Assembly (NCBI GenBank): GCA_011634665.1
Contig: WAEK01000010.1
Coordinates: 310,001 to 374,000, forward strand
DNA from: Mortierella sp. BCC40632
Taxonomy: Eukaryota; Mortierellomycota; Mortierellomycetes; Mortierellales; Mortierellaceae
Direction: 5' to 3'
Length of the DNA: 64,000 nt
Both the position numbers and the translations under genes were made by a program. Positions 779 through 64,000 of the stretch are shown here, piece by piece. Within the stretch, counting starts at the first letter, position 1. Every line of letters starts with the position of its first letter. Below the pieces are notes generated by a model. That model saw only the letters and a list, made by a program, of their open reading frames with translations, ran no database searches and was not told the DNA's origin.

Positions 779-3700
779 TTAGTAGCTCGATTGATAGACA
801 ATTCCATCGTGACACAAAGCAAAATTGATAGGAGATAAGCTTACGGCATGGTAGAGTGCTCTGATAAGTGGGTGGAACCCTGGTTCGGACTCTTCCTTCA
901 ATCCCTGCAGCTCTTGGATCAAGTCATTGGTGGTTCCGTCATCGTCTTCTTCGTTGTCATTATCGCCATCCCCTTCATCTTGATCACTGAAATCACTTTC
1001 GTGGCCAACTAACATATGCTTGATAGCTTTCGCATTGTCTGTAGCGACTTTATGATATTTCTCATGGGTCAAGTCTGCTGTTACATCACTGTCTATATCA
1101 TCTTCGATAATGTCCTTGCTCACAGTGGTCCCACTCCTTTTCTTATTGGGAACTTGTGGTGTTGATGCTGCGGCCCTCTTTCCTGCAGATCGCATAGTCC
1201 ATGCAGACGAGCTTGATGTGGCATCCACTGTCGCAAATAGATCAGGCAAGCTATCCTAATACCAAAAGTTTAAGGGAGAAAAAGTAGCAGAGTCATTAAT
1301 ATATTGCAGCCGACGATTTCAGTGCTCCTCAACACCTTTAAACTCTTTTACCATGTCTCCTTCTATTGCGAGGTTCACTTTCTTTTGCAGCAAAAGATGC
1401 TCTTTGCTACTCAAAAGTTCGCGATTGGCAGTTTTGAGAGCATTGTTTTTAGCAATTTCAGTGATTTCTTCTCCTAGGACTCCGCCATAATATTTTGTCA
1501 GATCGTTTGCAAAAGTTTGGATCTCTAGCGGCAGGCGTTTGATCCGTGAGATATCTTTCAGACTGGTAAGAAACTCTAAGTCTCAGTAAGCCCAGTAGAG
1601 AGGATGAAGTTCTCCAAACTCCATTCTGACATCTTGGAAGTCTTGAAATATACTAGGCAGTCAACATCACAAGGCAGTACTGTCACAGCTCCTCGGTATT
1701 CTGGTGCGGTCATCATTGCCCTCTCTAACGAGATTGTTAAAAATGCATTTAGCTTTACAAGCTATTCGTTTATTCACTTGTCAATCTAAATTTTACTTTG
1801 AATGCGCCTGCGAGCTCACAGGTGCATTCGACTTACCTTGAGTTCACCTGCTGACCAACCCAGTGAGCTCTGATGGACATCTCTTCCTGCTGACAGCCCA
1901 GAAGAGTGTAAGGATAAAAGACAATGATCTCCATGACACCCTCACTAAGCCCACCGAAGATAATCATATCGAATGAAAAAAAAAAAAAAAAAAAAAAAAA
2001 GGGAACGCAGAGTGTGTATGTATGTGTGTGTGTGAGAGAGAAAGGCCGAAGTGAGTGACTGCTCATGCTACGGGCAGAGAGAGCAGGTCTGTCATCCTTG
2101 GGCTGGAGAAAGCTAGGGCGGCCTTGTCCATTGAGGTAGACTGACCGAGAGGCGTAAATTCGTTTATCTTTGTCTCCACTGTCATCGCATTCTTGACTCT
2201 TGTCGTGATCCTCGGCCTTATCATCGCCAGGATAATAGCATTACCTGGAAATGAGGGCACAAACTCCGCAAGATAGTCTTGTTTTCGTCCAAGTTCTCAA
2301 ATGACAGCTCCTCTAGATACTGTCTAACTACTCGCTGACATGTTCTCTTTGCCCTTGCTACCAATCGAGTAATATTAGAGAGACAAGTCTTGATCCGCTG
2401 CAAGTAATCAACCTGGAGGGTGACATCGACTTCCTTGCTTAAGACTCGAGACATGTTTTTGCGTTGAGGGTTCCAACATCCAATGTCCGTGTGGGATGTT
2501 CCTTCTGAAGCACCAAAACGAGATCTTTATTGTCCAACTCATCCAATGGCTGGAGTTTAAGTTTTTTTAACCTTTGTCATAGACTGAGAGACACAAGCGA
2601 TGGGTTCTCGAAGAGGTTCAGGTATAGCCTTCCATGGTTTCCACGTGTATTCTTCAAAGATATCAGGGGGCTCGTGCTCCACGGTTCGTGTCCGAGTCTT
2701 GATAGAGTATCGTTTGCGGCACCTGTGTTTTTCCCCGAGGCGTGGAGTGGAACATGTTGGGTAAGTGGAAAGTCCGCAGTACTATACTGGTTGAATGCGC
2801 GATAGTTGTCTTCTTCCTGGTACCCTTTGAAAGACCTGGGTGAGCTCTCTGAAGTTAGTTTAGTGACAACAAAGTAGACTCTATATGGACCTGAAACTGG
2901 AAAGAATATTACCTTTTCCTCCTTTCATTCATCTGGCCACGAAGGTTATCCTGTCTCTGCAATACAATAGCTCGGCCAGTGGCATCTTGATTATCATCTC
3001 TAGGGTCTATGGTGGACTCCCGCTTAATGAATATTCTTTGAGTTGAGTCAAAATGGGACATGCTAGGGTGCTTACAAGTAATACCTTTGGGCCAAATAGA
3101 CATGTACTATCTCAGCAGGGTCTGTTGTAACAGAAGTGAAGAAGAAAGAAAGATGAGAAGAAGCATCAGCACCATTGACTCTGCGAATGAAAGCAAATCA
3201 AGGCAGGGCTAAACTGATTACTATCTTCGTCTAAAGACTGGATGATATCAAAGTTTCCTGTCACTCCGAGCCGAGTAATGTTGGAGGATTAGCTGTTCCG
3301 AAAGACGATACTAAGGACAGTGAATCCATTCCTTAAGATCCCCAAACGCTTCAGCAATCTACCATAAGCGAGACATCTTCCTCGAGCCAAAGGACCCCAG
3401 ACGGCTCTGATGGATGCGTAGATTAGGCAATCGCTGTCGCCCGAGATCACGATGTCGTTGGCTGAACAGTCTTGGCCATTGCGGTGTAAAATGACAAGTA
3501 CCAGGAGATATGACTCGCATCGCTTGGCAGGCAGGTTTGTGGGACCTCGGGAAAGGGGATTATCAGCATAAAAGAGGGAGACACACTACGGACGCGTCTC
3601 ACTGCTTCCATAAGAGGGAGAGAAAGGAAAGAAACAAAATAAGATAAAATGGTTCGCAAGAGAACAGTATCTCGCTACAAGATCGCACCCGAGGGGCAGG

Positions 3701-28618: not shown

Positions 28619-31600
28619 ATGGACCCTGTCCAGCCCAGCCCTCCCCTGCCCAAAAAGCAGGGGCCAACTCTGAACAAACCCAAAAAAATCTACCAACGAC
28701 GGTGGATCACCCTAACCGCTCTCGTCGCCATCCAAAGCCTATCCCTCTGGACCTCCCTCCCAACCGCAAACGCTCAGTTACTGCCCCACCCCGACCTCCC
28801 GCTCGAAAAACTCTTTCCTAGTCTCTCCTCATGGAAACCTCCCTCCCACCTGCAGGACGAAACACAAGACAGAGATACGGACATGGATAGAGACATAGAC
28901 TTGCACCAGGAACTGACCGGATCCCAACACATCTTCTCGGCGTCGCGCTTTGTCGTCCAGGAGCCATCCCAATCCACCTTTGAGCCCGTTGACCCTGTAG
29001 ACAAGCCTGACGAGATTCCATCCTTGGATCTGAGCCTCGAAAGAGCACTGCTCGAGGAAGAATGTCGACAACATCTTCTTCGTCCCCCATACAGTCCCGC
29101 TGTCTTTCGGGTCCCTCTCTATGAAGAGTCCAGCCCCGTGTCGGCACAGGACATTGAGTCACAACAGCAATGGGCTGGCGACGAAGCCGAGCCAGAGACA
29201 AAGACACCTCTGCGACTCTGGTACAAAAAGGCGGCCGACTCGGACTCTCTGCCAGAGGAAGGACTTGTCCTGGGGAATGGAAAGACTCAAGTCTTGGTAG
29301 GAGGTGGGATTAACGTAGAACGGATCCTTTTACACGATCCATCTTGCTGGACTGGAGGGCCGCATGATCTCCAAGTCCAGAATGTCGATGGTGACAAGGA
29401 CCAAGAGGGTCAAGGATACCGAGGTGGTAACATTGCAGAGGATGAAGCCCCGGAACGTCAACAGACTCTGAAAGAGTATCGTGAGATGATGGTAGAGAAG
29501 CATGGGGCCGTTGTAGCCAAGGATCCAATTGTACAAAAGTTGATGGGAAAGGAAGATGGATTTGGTACGGCTGCTCCATTGGGAGAGTTGGTGGTGGAAG
29601 AATTGCATCCATTCTCGAGAGTAAGTGATTACCGACGACAACTTGACCTTGCTACAGGAATTGTCAATGTCACTTGGATGTCTAGTGGTGTTTCCTATAT
29701 AAGGTAAAGTGTGTCTGTGTGCGTGAGAGAGAGAGAGAGAGAGAGAAAGTTTGCCTTGCTTCTCTACCTGTTCACGATTTTATAAAATTTTATCGCTAAC
29801 TCCATAATATGTACTTTTGGCTGATTCTAGAGAACACTATTGCAGCTCTCCAGATGGCGTCTGCGTGATGCGGCTCCGGGGCTCGGCACCAAAATCTGTC
29901 AACGTCAAAATCTCGTTCTGGACACCACACGAAGTCGAGTACACAAACATTCACAACAAACTAGGCATTCATGGTCATCTCCGGTCCAACAACTTGACAA
30001 TCGATGCCCAGGCTGCCATCAAGGCAGACGGTCTCGCGGGTGTCTCCATGTCCAACAATCAGCAAGTAATTCTAATGGCCTTTGACTCTGCCACAATTTA
30101 CTACTCTGCTGCCACGGGTTGGAGTGCTGCCGCGTACCCGAGGTTTGAGGACAAGGATCCTCAAGACGCATTGTCCAACACGGTGACCAAGGCTGCAGAG
30201 GCATTCCTTCCAGATCTCTTTCAAAAATATTTGGACGATTATACCAAGCTGTATAACTCGTTCGAGTTACGGTTCAATCGGGCTGAAGGGACCCAGGAAG
30301 AAAAAGAGAATGTTCTTCGATGGACGACCGATGATTTGTTACAATCGATCAAGGATGGCCATGCGAGTGAAGCGGAAAAGGCCTACTTTGACATGTTGAT
30401 GGTACAGTACAGCCGGTACCTTTTGATTGCCATGTCCCGGCCTGGTTCACTTCCAATCAGTAGTTCCCAATTTTGGACAGTCAAAGAAGCATCTTTGGTC
30501 GATCGACTCAGGTAAAAAAGACTTTTATTTCTTTGGAAAAATGAAAATGAACAATCGTGAAACGATTGCAACATGACTGATGATATTAATTGTTTTAGGT
30601 CTGGATACAAGATGGATATTGATTTGCAGATGAACTACTGGTTGTCAGAGACAACAGGACTTGGAGATACAGTAACACCGTTGATCGACTATATGGAGCA
30701 ACTGCTACTTCCACGAGGACAGGACACCGCCTATCTCCTGCACAATGCTCGTGGGTGGACAACGTATCCTTACTCCAACATTTGGGCCCACACGGGACCC
30801 ATGACCTCACTCAACACTTTTTACTTTCCTGCATCCGCAGCCTGGCTCTGTCAACATGCTTGGGATCATTACCTGTACTCGCAAGACAGCTCCTTTGTAA
30901 AGAACCATGCTTACAAGCTTATGAAGGGTGCCTCCGAGTTTTGGATTGATTCACTTGTACAAAGTCATGAGAACGAGACACTCCTCGTTAGCTCACCTTC
31001 ACACTCGCCTGAACATGGTCCCTTCACGGAAGGGGCTGCCGTGGATCAGCAACTAGTATGGCAACTCTTTAATAGCACCCTCGAGGCAGCCGTGATCGCT
31101 GGTGAAAGAGACAAGAAATTTCTCCTAGACTTGACGGATGCCTATAATCGACTCTCTACTGGACTCCGAGTTGGTGTCTGGGGACAGTTGCAAGAGTGGA
31201 TGTTGGACATGGATGATCCGAATGAAGCTCATCATCATTTGGCTCCATTCTATGCCATCTATCCAGGTCGACAAGCGTTTTGGATTGAGGATGAAGAGGA
31301 ACGGGAAAAGATCTTGAAAGCGGCTCGCGTTGCGCTTCAACGACGAGGAGATGGATCCACGGGCGAGGATGAGATGACGGTCAAAGGATGGCCCAAGGCC
31401 TGGAGAGCAGCGGTTTGGGCACGACTTGAACATGGAGAGGAAGCCATGGAGGCATTGGAGGGGTTCAGACGAATGAATATCAACCACTCTAACTTGATGT
31501 CGACGGAAGAGTTGTCTGGACAGTTTGGGTATAGTGCAGCGATCCTAGAGCTGCTTGTGCAGGACCGACGACCCGATGAGATCCGAGTGTGGACAGTGCC

Positions 31601-31937
31601 CCAAGCAGGACTACCGGGTTGGTGGGCGACAGGAGGGAACGTGAGAGGGTATAGAACACGGGATGGACATGAGGTTGCAGTACAGTGGAAGAATCATCGT
31701 GTAGAGGTTGTGGAGTTGACAACGAGCAGTGGTAGCAATGTTGGCAAGCATGGACCTCTTCGTGTTGTGGTGGGTACACTTGGTGGAGCAGAAGGAGAGG
31801 AAGGGGCGACACCAACAAGCAAGATCCAGGTAGTTTTGAGGGATTCAGGCAAGGCGGTTGCTTTTGAGCGCCTAGGAAACGAGGTCTCGTGGGCAGCAGC
31901 CAAGGGTCAAGCGTACCTGGTGAAGATTGAGGCCTGA
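28619..31937 (+). CDS. GH95-like glycoside hydrolase with altered catalytic residues
   Basis: Exons are 28619-29703, 29831-30511 and 30599-31937, in phase, giving 1,034 residues. A hydrophobic segment (about residues 29-50, after KKIYQRR) is a signal peptide or type II anchor. The N-terminal part has the GH95-like EGLVLGNGK, LLHDPSCWTGGP and YRRQLDLATG motifs; the (alpha/alpha)6 part has LQMNYW, WGQLQEWM and YPGRQ. GH95 enzymes remove alpha-1,2-L-fucose or alpha-L-galactose by inversion. The proposed general acid Glu is kept (E788 in LQEWM). The usual N-x-N before QMNYW reads D595-I-D597, and the usual Asp of the IDGNFG segment is replaced in LSGQFG (S895 region). It is therefore either inactive or catalysing with a re-arranged base. 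The family motif comparison is from memory. Confidence 0.85.
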
Positions 31938-32389: not shown

Positions 32390-35300
32390 ATGTCCAGCTG
32401 CAGTACTGATTCACCATCCTCTGCTCCTCTCGTCTCTTCCACTCCCCCACCCGCTTCCGCCATGATCTCCGCCGCGTCGCAGCCCCAAGTGGTCATCCCC
32501 GAGGGATCCTCCACCGCTACTCCCTCCAAGAGTTTGCATGATCAAGATGCAAAAAAGCCTTCCTCTGCAGACGATCACTCTCGCGCATCCGCCACAGACT
32601 CGACCACCCCTGCTGCTGCTCCCAAGCCCAAGACTACGACCACTGCCGAGACTACCACAGCCGCCAAAAAGGACAGCTCTCCTATGGATACCACGCCCGC
32701 AGAGAAATCATCAAAGGGCGCCTCCAAGGGCGAGACCACACAAAACAACGGCAAAGAGAACAGCAACGGCAACAGCAACGACAACGACAAAGGCAACAAA
32801 GGTGACAACAACATCAACACATCCATCTCGCCTAGTTCACAAACAACGCCACTACCGACTTCTTCCGGGTCACCCCCCGCGTCCCAAGTGAAAGAAAGCG
32901 GCGGCAACACTGACGGAGCAAATCGACCTGGAAAGACCTCAAGACCCAACTCCAAGAAGGGCCACCAGGCCAAGGCGGTGACGGCCAACAGCGAGGCTTC
33001 CTCGCCCGTTGCCGCCACCGCTGCCACGTCGGGTGAAAATACACCGACTGCGGCAGAGACAGCCAAGCCTACTAAGGGACCCCAATCAAAGAAAGACAAA
33101 TCCAACAAGAACAAAAAAGCGGACCGATCCTCGAATAAAGACGCAGGAACAGCGACACCGACCACGGCCACCACGACCCCAACCACGACCACGACCACGA
33201 CCACAACGGATGGAGCAACGAGTGCGTCGGGAGAAAGTAAGGAGACTTCCCATCACACAGGACCGTCTGCAACCTTTGGGACTGATGGAGCGAGTGGTTT
33301 CATCAAGGCACTGAATGCGATCAAGGTGCCTCGGTCGCCTCGACCACCCAGAGAGAAGAGCGATCAGCCATCTGATGAAGCATCATCGCCCAAGCCCGAC
33401 TTGACTTCTGCGCCCACCAAAAAGCCCGAGTCGTTTAAGAACAAGGCCAAGCGTATCAAGGATGACGACGATGCTACCTCCACCACCTCTGCTCATTCTG
33501 CCAAGGAGACTGAACAACCACAGCAACAACAAGGCGTCACTGTCGGTCCCAAAAAATCTGGAAGGGCAAAGAAACCATCCAAGGGTTCTTCAGACAAGGG
33601 ACAAGGCGAAAGCTCAGAATCTGCAGCCGCCTCTCCATCCCCTGCAACCCCCACTTCTTCATCCTCTACTGCAGCCCCTGTCGAGTCGGGCAAAGGTGCT
33701 CAAGGACCCAAGAGTAGAGCCAAGGCGGAGCGACCCCCAAAGCAACCCAGAGAGGAAGGATCGAATGCTGCTCCGGGTCAAGGAAAGCAAGAGAGGCAGA
33801 ATAGGACTGGGCCTCCTCCTCCAAAGAGAGATGGACCAGGACCTCGTCAGGGCAACACAAGAGAGGATACACGACAGGGTGACAAATCGGACCGTCCAAA
33901 GAAAGGTGCACGTAACGATGGATGGGGGGAGCCTCCTTCTTCGTCTTCTACTTTGACTGGCAACAGCAATCAGGCCACTTCATCTCCTGGTGAAACGAAC
34001 GCGTGGAGTCAACCCTCTGAGACTAATTCTGGCTGGGATCCTCAGAATACTCCTTGGAGTACCGAAACCAAGAAACCAGAGGGGACTGAAGGAGGATGGG
34101 GAGATTCTACACCAAAGGCCACTTCGACTTGGGGACCCGAGACTTCTTCTGGAACGACTGAGCCAGCTGGTAGATTTGGACCATCAGGAGGTCAGAATAC
34201 CTCACAGTCAGGAGCACCGTTCGAAGACCGACCTCCTCGAGGAAGCGATTCAGGACGAGGACGAGGAAGAGGAAGAGGAGGAAGATCCGATTTTGGTGGC
34301 GGCAGGACCGATGAGAGGAGACAAACGAATCGACCTATGGATGTGCGTCGAGACTCGGAGGGTGGATGGGGCAGGCATGAGGGTGCAGCGTCTTCTCACT
34401 ATCACTCTCAGAGGAGTGATACGACGCCTGGCAGTGGTGGTGACCATCCCCGACAGCGTCATTGGAATGAAGAGGGTCGACGATCTGGACCTTTTGAACC
34501 AAGGTCAGGATTCAAAGGGCCCAGATCCGATTATAGGTCCAACAACCCGGCGGAGACAGAGGGAGGACGATGGGGAAAGCCTCGACCAAACTCTTCCGGC
34601 TCTTGGTCCTCGAATAACCCGTCGTATGGAGACAGGAACAACAACAGGAACAACTCATCGTATGGCGACAGAAACAATGAGAGAAACAATGACAGAAACA
34701 ACTCATTTTACGGTGACCGGAACGGCGGTGACAGGAACAACAGGGGTCCAGAGGGCGGATGGGAAAGGCGCAAGCCAAGCGAAAAGTCGATCGAGTCAAC
34801 GCCCAAGGTCGCCAAGGATGGTGAGGGGGCCGAGGCTGGATGGGGGGAGTCACTGCCAGTGACAGCAACTAGTAATTGGTCACCCGACAATGTGCCATGG
34901 GCAGAATCGACCACCGAGGGCGATAATAAGAATAACGCCAAAGGACCTGAAGCAGGAAAGGGCGCCAATAAGAAAGGAGGTAAGGCTGCCAAGGCCAACG
35001 ACAGCTCTTTGACGCAACCCAGCTCGAGTGAGGAGCCACCCAAGGGTGCACAATGGACGGGTTCGGTTTCTGAAAGCAACAGTGCCAAAGAAACTGAAGG
35101 GGGTGGTGGTGGTAAGGGAAAGAAAAGAGGAGACAAGCCAGCGGCCAAGGCCACTACAGACAACAGCAATACTGCCGCCACGGCCACGGAAGCCACTCCA
35201 GTGACTGATGGATGGGGCAGTGCAGAGCCAACTCCTACTAATTCGGCCTGGTCACCTAACACTACACCCTGGGATGACGCCAAGACAGGCAGTAATGATC

Positions 35301-38049
35301 CCGCCAAGGAATCCAAAGGCAATTGGAACAAAAAGACGGAGAGGGCCCCCAAAAAGACGGATGACAATGCTCAATGGAACAGTTCTGAATCTGCGCCCTC
35401 AACGGGTGCTGGTAGTGGTTGGGGTAAACCAGATCAACCTGCCACTTCCTCCTGGCCACCCAATGAATCGTCCAAGGACTCGAGACCAGAGACTGGCGGT
35501 TACAAAGGATCTGGTCCAGGTGCTAGAGACAAGAAAGGATCAGGACCAGGACCTGCAAAGAACTTTGACAAGCGACCCCCCAGGAGTGGATCCAAGTGGG
35601 AAGGCAGCAACAGCAATGTAGACTCGAGCAAAGACTGGGGCCAACAAGACTCGGCTGCCAAGACTGAGACAACTTCTTCTTGGGAGGATACCGCAAAGAC
35701 TGGCGCAGTGGAGAGCACTGGTAATGGGTGGGGCGAGACTACCAAGACGGAGAATACTGACGGATGGAGCGCTCCAAAGGCTTCATCGGGTAAAGAGAAC
35801 ACCTCATGGGAACAGACACAGGCCAGCAGGGCTGCCGAGTGGGAGAGAGGCGCGAATGCAGGTCATGGCTCTGGTAGAGAGGGTCCTCGACCCAACTATC
35901 GCCAAGGCGGAGGTCCCGGTGGAAGGAACGACCATTACCAGCGCGATTCTCAGGATCAGACTCGCCGGGACTCTGGCTATAAGCGATACTCAGATTCTGC
36001 TGCACCGGGTTCAGAGGCTGGAGGAGCCTATCCACGCGATGCTCGGTCTTCTTTGGATTCCAGGAATGCACGATTGAATGCACAACGTGAGGTGAATCGG
36101 GGTCCTCGACCAGAAGAAGGGGAAGGTGCCAGGACCTCTGGACCATATGAGGGCAAGAGAAGGAATTGGAGGGATCAACCTGGTGGCCAAGATGGTCAAG
36201 GAGCAGTATCGACGACGCATCCTTCCAACAGGGGACCTTCGGACTATCCACCTCGATCTAACAGAGGACCTTCGGACTATCCACCTCGATCCAACAGAGG
36301 ACCTTCGGATTATCCACCTCGATCCAACAGGGGACCTTCAGACTATCCACCTCGATCCAACAGGGGACCTACGGATTATCCACCTCGGCCCAACAAGTCT
36401 ACGTCTGAAGCCTCGTCCTCAACTACAACACGGAAGCCTGCCAAACCAAAGGGGCCAAAGCCTACTCAGGTAGAGGAGCGAATTGAATAGATTTGAACTT
36501 TTTTTTTTTTTTGGAACCTATTGAGTAAAGTTAACTAATTGTTGAATCATTTTTGTTGCTGCTGTTGCTATTGTTGTTGTCGTTTTCTCTTGAATAATTG
36601 ATAGGGCCCCTTGTTCTCCAGCTCTTTGGAATGTCAGTTGGAGTGGGAAGATATGCAGTTAAAGCCCAATGTATTGTCCAAGATCGAACAATTTGGGTAC
36701 GTTTTTTTTAAAGAAAAAGAAAAAGAAAAAGAAAAAGAAAAAGAAAGAAAGAAAAAAGAAAAAAAGAAAAAAACCGGATGCTAACTGCACACTATCTGAT
36801 CACGTCTAATAGTCTTAAGAAACCCTCCAACATTCAAAAATTGGTCATGAAACCATTCAGCGAGGGCAGGGACGTGATCGCTCAGTCTCAATCTCAAAAG
36901 GATCGCACCAATACACTTGCGATCGCCTTGCTTCAAAAGATCAAGGTTGAAAAGAAGGGATGTCAGGCAGTCATGATTTGCTCCGAAGGTGTCAACCCAC
37001 AAAAGGTGCAAGAAGACTTTCAAGTATGGTTCGAAGGTTCAGGTATTACTTCTGTCCTACTCAAGGATCCCAACGCCGCTGCCAACGCAAGTAATCAAGA
37101 AGAGGGCAATGGTAGCAAGGAAGTATCCTCGGCTGCAACCGAGTCGAGTGGATTCGGTTTGTCCCAACCAGACCAACAACAGGTAGTGATAACGACACTT
37201 GGACCTTTGATGGAAGTCCTGAAGAAGAACTTGCTGGGTATGAGTACGGTGGAGACTGTGGCTATTTCGATGCGATCCGATGAACTTGTTGGTTTCGATG
37301 CATTCAAACAATTTTGGGCGATGTTACCACGGGAAGCCCAAGTAGTGTTGATGACAGGCAAGATTATGCCCATGATTCAAACGATTCGAGACCATCATTT
37401 CCGAGATAACACTGCTGTTCTGAGAGCGGATGAGTTGACACTTCAATGGAGTGAGCATTACTATGTGGATGTGGAAGGTGAAGATCACCGCTGGACGGTG
37501 CTCAAGAACATTTTTGAAACCAATCCCGAGATTTCACATACGGTGATCTTGACTCAATCTCAGAGTTTGACTCAATCGTTGACGGATCGGATCAAGGAAG
37601 AGTTGGGTCTCCCTGTTATTTCTGTGGTAAGATGAGGTTATCTCTCTCTGTCTTTTTTTTTTTTTTTTTTTTTTTTTTATTGCTGACACCTTTGCACAAT
37701 TTATCTAATCTGCCCTTTTTATTTTTCTTCTCTTCTTCCTACCAGTGGAGTGTGGCGGACAAGACCGAGGTGGCCAAGAGCTTCAACAGTCCCGAGAAAT
37801 GTATTCTGGTGTCCGAGAGTATTTTGATGGATAGTTTGGACCTCGATCATTATTCAATGGTGATCAATTATGAGATGCCCAAGCGAGCTACGTTCTATGT
37901 GTCGTCGTTCGGGCCCTTTGGACGATCAGGAATGCGATCGATGATGATCAATCTCTGTGCGACCCAGGATCCTACTCAAAAGAGGATTTTGGATGAAATA
38001 GGATCGCTTTACAAGATCAAGATCCAGGAGATGAAGGTAACGCCTCTCT

Positions 38050-38089
<40 letters not shown>

Positions 38090-38136
38090 ACGAGATGACA
38101 AAAGCTGATGTGTTGGCCAAATTGAGTGTTGTTTGA
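32390..38136 (+). CDS. GW/WG-repeat protein fused to an inactive eIF4A-like helicase
   Basis: Exons are 32390-36469, 36605-36696, 36813-37626, 37746-38036 and a short last exon best read as 38095-38136 (a 38089 acceptor would end it a few codons differently). Phases agree across all junctions; the protein has about 1,772 residues. Residues 1-510 are Thr/Ser/Lys/Gly-rich and disordered. Residues 510-1130 hold at least ten WG or GW dipeptides in acidic, Pro/Ser/Thr-rich context plus an RGG cluster (GRGRGRGRGG). Residues 1279-1333 are five 11-residue repeats. From residue 1361 the frame follows eIF4A/FAL1 end to end: Q-motif-like WEDMQLKPNVL, KPSNIQ, GRDVIAQSQS, ADELTL, INYEMP and ADVL. Yet GTGK reads QKDR, DEAD reads MRSD, SAT reads TGK and HRIGRSGR reads SSFGPFGR. 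It should fold but not hydrolyse ATP. Role inferred: scaffold in RNA silencing or translation. Confidence 0.85.
36224..36388 (+). repeat. Five 33-bp tandem repeats inside the GW protein
   Basis: Five near-identical 33-bp units encode SNRGPSDYPPR-type repeats of 11 residues, immediately before the exon boundary that leads to the helicase-like part. Differences are mostly synonymous (TCC/TCT, GAC/GAT), so the amino-acid repeat is kept; the last unit has Thr for Ser. Confidence 0.95.
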
Positions 38137-45293: not shown

Positions 45294-45894
45294 TTTTTTT
45301 TTTTAGGGGATGAGGTTCTACAAGAGGTGAAAGTAAGGTGGGAGAAACAAGTTTAAAAAAAAGAAAAAAAGAAAAGAAAGGAAAAGAAAAAGAAAAAGAA
45401 AAAAAAAAGGTGAAGGAGAAAGTAGAAAGTAAAGAAGAAAAAGTGAGGAGAAAGGCAAGGGATAAATAAATAAAAAAAAGAGAGAGATGTCCTGAGCCTG
45501 GACTTGAGTCAATTTAAGAATGGGCGTATCTGTCCATCGATGAGCATACTGCGCAATTCATGGGGCTCGAAGTCAGTAATCACCTTATTTCTGATCCGTC
45601 ATCCTTTCCCCCTCCCCATCGTTGGGGCTTCGCCCACGACCATTTTTTTTTTTTTGGATAAAGTCAAAAAAAAAGAAAAAAAAAAAACTTTGGAACATGG
45701 TTTTACGCCACTTTCTTTCTTTCTTTTTTTTTCCGCAGTTTTTCTACTCACTCCATCCTTCACTTTGATCCTTCATTTCTCATCTTTCATCCTCAATCTG
45801 GGGCACAAAACAGATGGGAAGCATCCCTTCCTTCCTTCCTTATTGGGGATGAGAAAAAACAGGCGATGGCGAGGAGGGCGCCGGAGCAAAAAGT
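45294..45894. other. Intergenic, no gene seen
   Basis: A-rich purine DNA (45350-45480) upstream of the MBL-fold gene, T/A tracts at 45643-45656 and 45665-45688, and CTTT/CTTC runs. It holds the MBL-fold promoter. A TTTTT run just past the tRNA end (about 45887-45891 on the minus strand) would serve as a Pol III terminator. Confidence 0.5.
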
Positions 45895-45967
45895 GCTTGC
45901 GCCAGGGTTCGAACCTGGGACCTTGTCTTAGTGAGAGACATGTGATAACCAACTACACCACGAAAGC
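45895..45967 (-). tRNA. tRNA-Val (CAC)
   Basis: The 73-base minus-strand sequence folds as a cloverleaf: acceptor GCTTTCG/CGCAAGC with one U-C mismatch at pair 5, D arm like other eukaryotic valine tRNAs (GTGTAGTTGGTTATCAC, containing box A), anticodon stem TGTCT/AGACA, loop CTCACTA giving anticodon CAC, and a perfect 5-bp T stem around GGTTCGAACC (box B). A TTTTT run follows 4-8 bases downstream. The base after the anticodon is T instead of a purine, and with the acceptor mismatch this hints at a weakly expressed or decaying copy. No intron. Confidence 0.8.
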
Positions 45968-63530: not shown

Positions 63531-63672
63531 CTGGAAAATGGCCGAGGGGGGTTGAAAAAAGATCAAGGGATGCTAAAAAAGGTAAGGGATGCAAAGGGGT
63601 TGACATTATCCCGTGATCGCAGACATCAGTTGCGATTCTAGTCTGAAACGCAACGCTAATAGGAGGAGCGAC
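63531..63672. other. Spacer before the rRNA segment
   Basis: G-rich at 63532-63600, then unique sequence up to a sharp start of rRNA similarity at about 63673. I could not align this part to large-subunit rRNA. Confidence 0.4.
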
Positions 63673-63713
63673 AACTGGCTTGTGGCAGCCAAGCGTTCAT
63701 AGCGACGTTGCTA

Positions 63714-63745
<32 letters not shown>

Positions 63746-64000
63746 ACTGAAGCAGAATTCAGTAAGCGTTGGATTGTTCACCCACAAATAGGGAACGTGA
63801 GTTGGGTTTAGACCGTCGTGAGACAGGTTAGCTTTACCCTACTGATGAAGTGTTGTTGCAATAGTAATTGAAGTTAGTACGAGAGGAACACTTCATTCGG
63901 ATAATTGGTATTTGGGTCTGCCTGAACAAGCAATGGCCCGAAGCTATCATCCGTTGGATTATGGCTGAACACCTCTAAGTCAGAATCCGTGCTAGAACGC
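63673..64000 (+). rRNA. Large-subunit (26S/28S) rRNA, 3' part, 5'-truncated, runs off the edge
   Basis: From AACTGGCTTGTGGCAG onward the sequence follows domains V-VI of cytosolic large-subunit rRNA without gaps: GCGTTCATAGCGAC, CTTCGATGTCGGCTC, GCAGAATTC, GGTTTAGACCGTCGTGAGAC, the sarcin-ricin loop AGTACGAGAGGAAC, and CTAAGTCAGAATCC. Similarity stops abruptly upstream, at the peptidyl-transferase region, so the 5' 85% of the gene is missing here. It differs at strongly conserved sites (GAGTTGG for GAGCTGG, AACACC for AACGCC), so it could be a pseudogene; the sequence beyond the window decides. Confidence 0.85.

What the first reader, a model, noticed from the sequence alone, without database searches (positions are those of the whole stretch)
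32390..38136. GW-repeat platform fused to a catalytically dead eIF4A-like helicase
Seen: exons in phase join a 1,360-codon GW/WG-rich exon to a C-terminal region that follows eIF4A/FAL1 from Q motif to the end. Every ATPase and RNA-binding motif is replaced: GTGK to QKDR (residues 1419-1422), DEAD to MRSD (1544-1547), SAT to TGK (1572-1574), HRIGRSGR to SSFGPFGR. Structural residues between the motifs (GRDVIAQSQS, ADELTL, INYEMP) are kept. Known: GW/WG tracts bind Argonaute in GW182, Tas3 and NRPE1; eIF4A is the helicase that GW182-type repression acts on through eIF4F. Inference: a single-chain silencing adaptor that could bind Argonaute and occupy an eIF4A or exon-junction-type site without ATP turnover. 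I know of no described protein with this architecture.
Basis: partly seen in the sequence, partly recalled or inferred. Interest (0 to 1): 0.9.

Follow-up and report, generated by a model that had tools for sequence, protein, structure and literature searches.

The report
Conserved dead eIF4A-like protein with GW-tract
A family of soil fungi carries a protein whose helicase engine has been swapped for a fixed, conserved, apparently inactive version and is, in most gene models, joined to a long floppy tail often rich in tryptophan-glycine pairs, which points to a scaffold in mRNA control rather than a working helicase.

The parts
32390..36469 (+). exon 1: disordered region, 1,360 codons, no Pfam match
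   Evidence: hydrophobic residues 7.3% of the first 1,348
33311..33358 (+). SPR-type island in exon 1 (weak)
   Evidence: profile of 26 of 33 relatives scores 6.3 bits here; 1 of 300 shuffles as high
33458..33514 (+). acidic/serine island (DDDD..S..S), conserved
   Evidence: profile of 25 of 33 relatives, 10.5 bits, 0 of 300 shuffles as high
33920..36169 (+). W-rich tract, 30 W, 10 GW and 10 WG
36032..36118 (+). SLDSRNAR island, the best scoring part of exon 1; helix predicted in a relative
   Evidence: 28.2 bits, shuffles at most 4.4; helix at 165-174 of P0031, low confidence
36224..36395 (+). 33-base tandem repeat, 5.2 copies (SNRGPSDYPPR)
36605..36696 (+). exon 2: start of the eIF4A-like core
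36813..37626 (+). exon 3: Q motif, RecA1 and start of RecA2
36895..36906 (+). motif I position, QKDR in place of GTGK
   Evidence: residues, bases by arithmetic and checked
37270..37281 (+). motif II position, MRSD in place of DEAD
   Evidence: residues, bases by arithmetic and checked
37354..37362 (+). motif III position, TGK in place of SAT
   Evidence: residues, bases by arithmetic and checked
37746..38036 (+). exon 4: rest of RecA2
37902..37925 (+). motif VI position, SSFGPFGR in place of HRIGRxGR
   Evidence: residues, bases by arithmetic and checked
38088..38136 (+). exon 5, acceptor unsettled: 38088-38108 or 38095-38136
29817..31937 (+). upstream neighbour: two ORFs of a GH95 glycoside hydrolase; in Mortierella sp. 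AM989 one gene model (P0019) runs a GH95 protein and the pseudohelicase together

Best explanation
The gene encodes a pseudohelicase: an eIF4A-type two-RecA core that has lost the residues for ATP hydrolysis and most RNA contacts but has been kept, with largely fixed new residues at the old motifs, in the Mortierellaceae. Shown by sequence: the gene model, the loss of catalytic residues in all 34 cores compared, their conservation. Predicted: the fold. Inferred: the core works as an ATP-independent docking module, most likely on a HEAT scaffold, with CNOT1 of CCR4-NOT the first candidate, and the long tail with its W motifs recruits Argonaute, CNOT9 or PAN3 and RNA, so that the protein bridges target recognition and mRNA repression or decay.
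Against: No interaction, expression or phenotype data. The domain arrangement comes from AlphaFold2 on shallow alignments (33 and 42 rows), no inter-domain error was given, rmsd is 5 A or more, and no control model of an active eIF4A was run. Other MIF4G-bound forms are no nearer than closed ones: eIF4A with eIF4G 8huj 0.54 and 2vso 0.50, eIF4AIII with CWC22 4c9b 0.41 of the query. In VIA-align DDX39A (8iju, no partner in the title, 31.1) is second. By Foldseek E-value closed eIF4A and EJC forms rank above 4ct4. CNOT1 contact residues could not be checked, as two structure papers are not held. The W tract is missing in two Actinomortierella models and varies from 5 to 33 pairs elsewhere. The window lacks the strict W motif.
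Confidence: 0.33

Rival explanations
1. A structural RNP component or helicase cofactor of the Utp25 type: the dead core sits in a particle (ribosome assembly, EJC or spliceosome) or pairs with active eIF4A/FAL1, and the W/G/R-rich tail is a sticky low-complexity region for RNA or condensates without a dedicated Argonaute function.
For: Utp25p is a DEAD-box pseudohelicase of the SSU processome whose motifs can be ablated (PMC9539457, abstract and passages). RGG, GRG or RGR triplets occur in 28 of 29 long models, GW number is variable and looks tandem-expanded in P0032 (by eye), and the core is kept without GW in Actinomortierella. The core is about equally near eIF4A-I and eIF4A-III in a profile search (4e-51, 5.7e-49).
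Against: W beside G exceeds composition in 27 of 29 and a W motif is shared across genera, which plain stickers would not need. No partner is known.
Confidence: 0.37
2. One reading: Argonaute binds the GW tract while the core occupies the eIF4A place in eIF4F or the EJC.
For: GW tract, Piwi-domain loci, eIF4A-like core. The PIWI part of one own Argonaute is close to human AGO3 (1.6e-94), and several residues that I recall as Trp-pocket residues of human AGO2 (F653, Y654, K660, L694, Y698) are kept in that alignment, while P590 and V591 are F and L; the stretch near 659 lies at an exon join that I made by eye.
Against: eIF4G-contact positions not kept. GW absent in two Actinomortierella models. 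Fungal GW sites variable (PMC12477606). No YxxxxL[hydrophobic] motif in 28 of 29 tails; the one with matches is the gene model fused to GH95.
Confidence: 0.12
3. A nucleotide-sensing switch: adenine is still read through the Q motif and the protein changes state on binding without hydrolysis, or has gained another chemistry at the old active site.
For: Q-motif Q and Walker T kept in 34 of 34, Walker K always R, and the new residues at motif I largely fixed. An inactive cassette with a nucleotide-binding pocket is described for Brr2 (PMC8220420, start of abstract in the listing).
Against: D replaces the second Walker glycine in 34 of 34 and D1 and E of motif II are gone in 34 of 34, so phosphate and magnesium binding look unlikely.
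Confidence: 0.12
4. A pseudogene, wrong gene model or annotation artefact.
For: No transcript evidence was available; the 3' acceptor is ambiguous; 15 relatives have short models with little or no tail.
Against: 49-62% identity to 27 relatives over the core, largely fixed replaced motifs, collinear islands in exon 1, shared upstream neighbour in one relative.
Confidence: 0.02

Closest known systems
eIF4A / FAL1 (eIF4A-III)
   Same: whole two-RecA core aligns from Q motif to the EM end; beside them, not SUB2, in the tree
   Different: catalytic residues lost in 34 of 34; mean identity of the family to own eIF4A and FAL1 25% and 24%; long fused tail; eIF4G contact residues not kept
Utp25 pseudohelicase
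   Same: DEAD-box fold without working motifs, repetitive front part (PMC9539457, passages)
   Different: Utp25 is an SSU-processome protein of yeast and human with vestigial motifs; here replaced motifs are largely fixed, the relation to eIF4A is plain by sequence and the tail is W-rich
SDE3 (Ago hook plus RNA helicase)
   Same: GW-type tract and helicase in one chain (title only)
   Different: SDE3 is an active-type, MOV10-like helicase (recalled); here the helicase is dead and eIF4A-like
GW182/TNRC6, Tas3, NRPE1, Cryptococcus Gwo1
   Same: disordered region with GW/WG pairs above chance (for these proteins recalled, in part from PMC12477606)
   Different: no Pfam domain or PAM2-like motif in exon 1; fused to a pseudohelicase; Gwo1 seen here only as an Ago1 partner at P-bodies (PMC6643885, passages)
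DDX6/Dhh1 and eIF4A2 as CNOT1 partners
   Same: predicted domain arrangement nearest to CNOT1-bound DDX6
   Different: those keep the ATPase motifs (recalled); binding here untested

Membership tests
DEAD-box helicase (active) | Walker GKT, DEAD, SAT, HRxGRxxR catalytic residues | tested here: not met
   Walker K, D1 and E of motif II, S of motif III and H, R2, R5 of motif VI kept in 0 of 34, T of motif III in 1 of 34
DEAD-box helicase fold / eIF4A homologue | two RecA-like domains with sequence relation to eIF4A | tested here: met
   PDB profile search 4e-51 with 10 of 34 cores, model pLDDT 83.5 and fold matches
Pseudohelicase (as defined for Utp25) | helicase fold kept, motifs non-functional | tested here: met
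   by sequence and prediction only
Pseudohelicase (as defined for Utp25) | the protein has a cellular role | not testable with these tools
   conservation argues for one; needs a knockout
GW/WG Argonaute-binding platform | disordered region with GW/WG above composition | tested here: met
   27 of 29 models with at least 500 residues before the core, p 0.0105 or less; P0026 and P0027 have none
GW/WG Argonaute-binding platform | binds Argonaute through W residues | not testable with these tools
   needs pull-down with W-to-A changes
GW/WG Argonaute-binding platform | host Argonaute keeps Trp pockets | tested here: inconclusive
   one of three own Argonautes aligned to human AGO2/3; pocket residues recalled, part kept, part changed
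GW182/TNRC6 family | UBA, RRM, PAM2 besides the GW tract | tested here: not met
   no Pfam match in exon 1, no PAM2-like pattern in 29 tails
eIF4G-binding eIF4A | D265, E268, D296, T298 contact positions | tested here: not met
   T298 position P in 34 of 34, E268 position E in 1 of 34, D265 position D in 9 of 34, D296 position D in 2 of 34 (own eIF4A has E, own FAL1 N at the last)
MIF4G/CNOT1-binding DEAD-box core | domain arrangement and contact residues of a CNOT1-bound core | tested here: inconclusive
   arrangement nearest to 4ct4 by TM-score and VIA-align Z, but eIF4G- and CWC22-bound forms no nearer than closed ones; contact residues not tested

The most novel reading that the evidence does not exclude
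The Mortierellaceae evolved a one-chain counterpart of the animal GW182-CCR4-NOT-DDX6 silencing module: W motifs catch Argonaute or CNOT9, and a dead eIF4A-derived core locks on CNOT1 in place of DDX6 or eIF4A without ATP, a pseudoenzyme repressor invented once at or near the base of the family.
Probability: 0.15. Interest if true: 0.88.

Novelty: new variant of a known kind. Interest (0 to 1): 0.65.

Why it matters
The word pseudohelicase occurs in only 3 of 5.39 million held papers, and the paper on Utp25 counts that protein as only the second proposed case (PMC9539457, passage). Here is a whole family of them, related to eIF4A, whose largely fixed replacements suggest that the dead site itself is under selection. 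Of 36 members with an organism name, 27 are labelled as eIF4A in public records, so automatic annotation hides them. If the core docks on CNOT1 or another scaffold it would show that the ATPase of a DEAD-box partner can be dispensed with, and its link to a GW tract would make RNA silencing in early-branching fungi directly testable. I saw no record of the family in the listings, which show only the top rows of longer lists and cover openly licensed papers only.

Tried and rejected
Decaying allele: rejected by the orthologues. Recent copy of the genome's own eIF4A: rejected, the stem is 7.5 changes per column and the next match in its genome, eIF4A, is at 28%; long-branch warnings apply, so eIF4A rather than FAL1 as parent is not settled. 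PAM2, eIF4E-binding and FDF-like motifs in 29 tails: none, save eIF4E-type matches in P0019, the gene model fused to GH95. The W-P-W pattern is absent from the window itself, P0004, P0021, P0022, P0026 and P0027; the window's NWSPDNVPW and AWSPNTTPW look like loose versions, by eye. The W-P-W and SPR profiles do not beat all shuffles in the window (1 of 300 each). The SLD.R..R island was not found by pattern in P0003, P0019 and P0021-P0025. The protein searches only reach proteins that share words with the query and lie within a length range, and two scored only the candidates sharing most words, so absence outside Mortierellaceae is not proven; the 96 further hits were not examined one by one. 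Rows left out: tree and motif table used 34 of the 49 family sequences, the PDB profile 10 of 34, the second model's alignment 42 of 48 relatives, GW counts the 29 with 500 or more residues before the core. Counts are of related sequences, not of independent events. No DNA of relatives was at hand, so no dN/dS. Whether Actinomortierella has Argonaute was not tested. CNOT1 contact residues were not tested: two papers not held.
Full report
The gene. On the + strand, ORF 32390-36490 (1,366 codons) leads through a GT at 36470 into four further exons with GT/AG borders and matching phase. The protein has 1,765 or 1,772 residues depending on the last acceptor. The window is part of contig C10 of a 49.9 Mb genome in 62 contigs. 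The named relatives are fungi of the family Mortierellaceae.

The core. Residues 1361-1772 match yeast eIF4A (2.3e-34), human eIF4A-I (about 1e-32) and eIF4A-III (about 2e-32) in the PDB; a profile of ten family cores gives 4e-51 and 5.7e-49 for eIF4A-I and eIF4A-III. The same genome has eIF4A, FAL1 and SUB2 genes with normal motifs (SUB2 with DECD); the window core is 26%, 25% and 18% identical to them.

The family. Three protein searches gave 27, 31 and 113 hits. They hold 48 distinct members, P0001-P0048; the other 96 hits of the third search carry DEAD-box Pfam domains and were not examined one by one. The members separate from these by a wide gap (9.3e-96 against 8.0e-49). The 36 with an organism name come from Mortierella, Linnemannia, Podila, Haplosporangium, Entomortierella, Dissophora, Gryganskiella, Actinomortierella, Lobosporangium, Modicella and Gamsiella, all in Mortierellaceae. 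All 49 sequences including the window match patterns for QSxDRT at motif I and TGx at motif III; 39 of 49 carry FGxFGRSG, and the ten without it are models of 208-321 residues. A GxGK-like pattern occurs once, in the tail of P0018, not in a core.

Conserved inactivity. In an alignment of 34 cores with the own eIF4A, the Walker lysine is R in 34, the second Walker glycine D in 34, motif II has lost D1 and E in 34, motif III S is T in 34, motif VI H, R2 and R5 are gone in 34. The Q-motif Q, Walker T, motif Ib G, motif V D and last motif VI R stay in 34. Over 40 motif columns, some of which keep the eIF4A residue, the mean entropy is 0.54, against 0.90 in 296 others; 13 of 10,000 random column sets were as low. 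This is the opposite of decay. Not all replacements are fixed: motif II and the third residue of motif III vary. In a tree the family is one clade (100/100) on a stem of 7.5 changes per column beside eIF4A and FAL1; the program warned that long branches meet, so the exact parent is open.

The tail. It is poor in hydrophobic residues (7-12% in 28 of 29 long models; the exception, P0019, includes a fused GH95 protein). W beside G is above shuffles in 27 of 29 models with at least 500 residues before the core (p 0.0105 or less); the two that fail, P0026 and P0027, are Actinomortierella with no GW or WG at all. A motif like WGEDLPW recurs in 23 of 29. Two exon 1 islands score in the window above all 300 shuffles: a DDDD/S island (10.5 bits) and the SLDSRNAR island (28.2 bits, shuffles up to 4.4), while the SPR and W-P-W profiles reach only 1-in-300 levels. 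The SLDAR island is present in Actinomortierella, so it may be older or more constrained than the GW pairs; by pattern it is missing in five models of the Podila clade and in P0019 and P0022. The fifteen members added by the third search have models of 208-480 residues with little or no tail; that search admits only short candidates, and some of them begin at an inner methionine, so this does not show that the tail is absent in those species, but it leaves the point open for Lobosporangium and Modicella among others.

Neighbourhood. A GH95 gene lies just upstream on the same strand (29817-31937). In Mortierella sp. AM989 one gene model, P0019, holds a GH95 protein (52% identical over 449 residues to the window's) followed by the pseudohelicase. 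This supports common descent of the locus; other relatives were not checked for it.

Partners. The genome has three Piwi-domain loci, an RdRP, several MIF4G matches, two loci with the CNOT1 CAF1-binding MIF4G domain and a CNOT9/Rcd1 locus. eIF4G is a poor candidate: of four eIF4A1 positions whose joint change impairs eIF4G binding (PMC7470955, passages), none is kept as a rule (the window itself has E at the E268 position). CNOT1 binds eIF4A2 and DDX6 in competition (PMC6736043, abstract and passages). That W pockets of CNOT9 bind GW182, and that Gle1 is a MIF4G-like HEAT protein, is recalled and comes from no call.

Judgement. Observation confirmed; a conserved pseudohelicase with, in the long models, a fused W-rich tail is well supported by sequence. 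What it docks on is inference. Known kinds at hand are the pseudohelicase Utp25 (PMC9539457, passages), the Ago-hook helicase SDE3 (title only) and fungal Gwo1 (PMC6643885, passages); I saw no match for the combination with an eIF4A-derived dead core in the listings, which cover only openly licensed papers. I rate it a new variant of a known kind.

Noticed in passing
63623-64000, continuing to L035:1242 (G000:C10:373623-374241): An isolated 3' piece of a eukaryotic LSU rRNA gene, 619 bases, matching model positions 2391-3399 of 3401 (so with internal losses), with no other rRNA match in the 64 kb window or the 8 kb of L035; preceded by 13-base tandem repeats.
   Followed up: partly
29817-31937: GH95 glycoside hydrolase gene directly upstream on the same strand; the same pair occurs in Mortierella sp. 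AM989 as one gene model of 2,261 residues.
   Followed up: yes
45894-45967 (-): One tRNA gene by Rfam.
   Followed up: no
G000:C8:1486905-1487659 and G000:C1:233601-234394: Two separate loci match the CNOT1 CAF1-binding MIF4G domain, so this fungus seems to have two Not1-type genes.
   Followed up: no
L032 (G000:C6:2803500-2809500): The PIWI part of this own Argonaute is far closer to human AGO3 (1.6e-94) than to Neurospora QDE-2 (6.4e-44) among solved structures.
   Followed up: no
36224-36395: A 33-base in-frame tandem repeat (SNRGPSDYPPR, 5.2 copies) between the W tract and the core.
   Followed up: no
public records of P0001-P0048: 27 of the 36 relatives with an organism name are annotated as eIF4A-I, -II, -III or translation initiation factor eIF4A although the catalytic motifs are lost.
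   Followed up: yes
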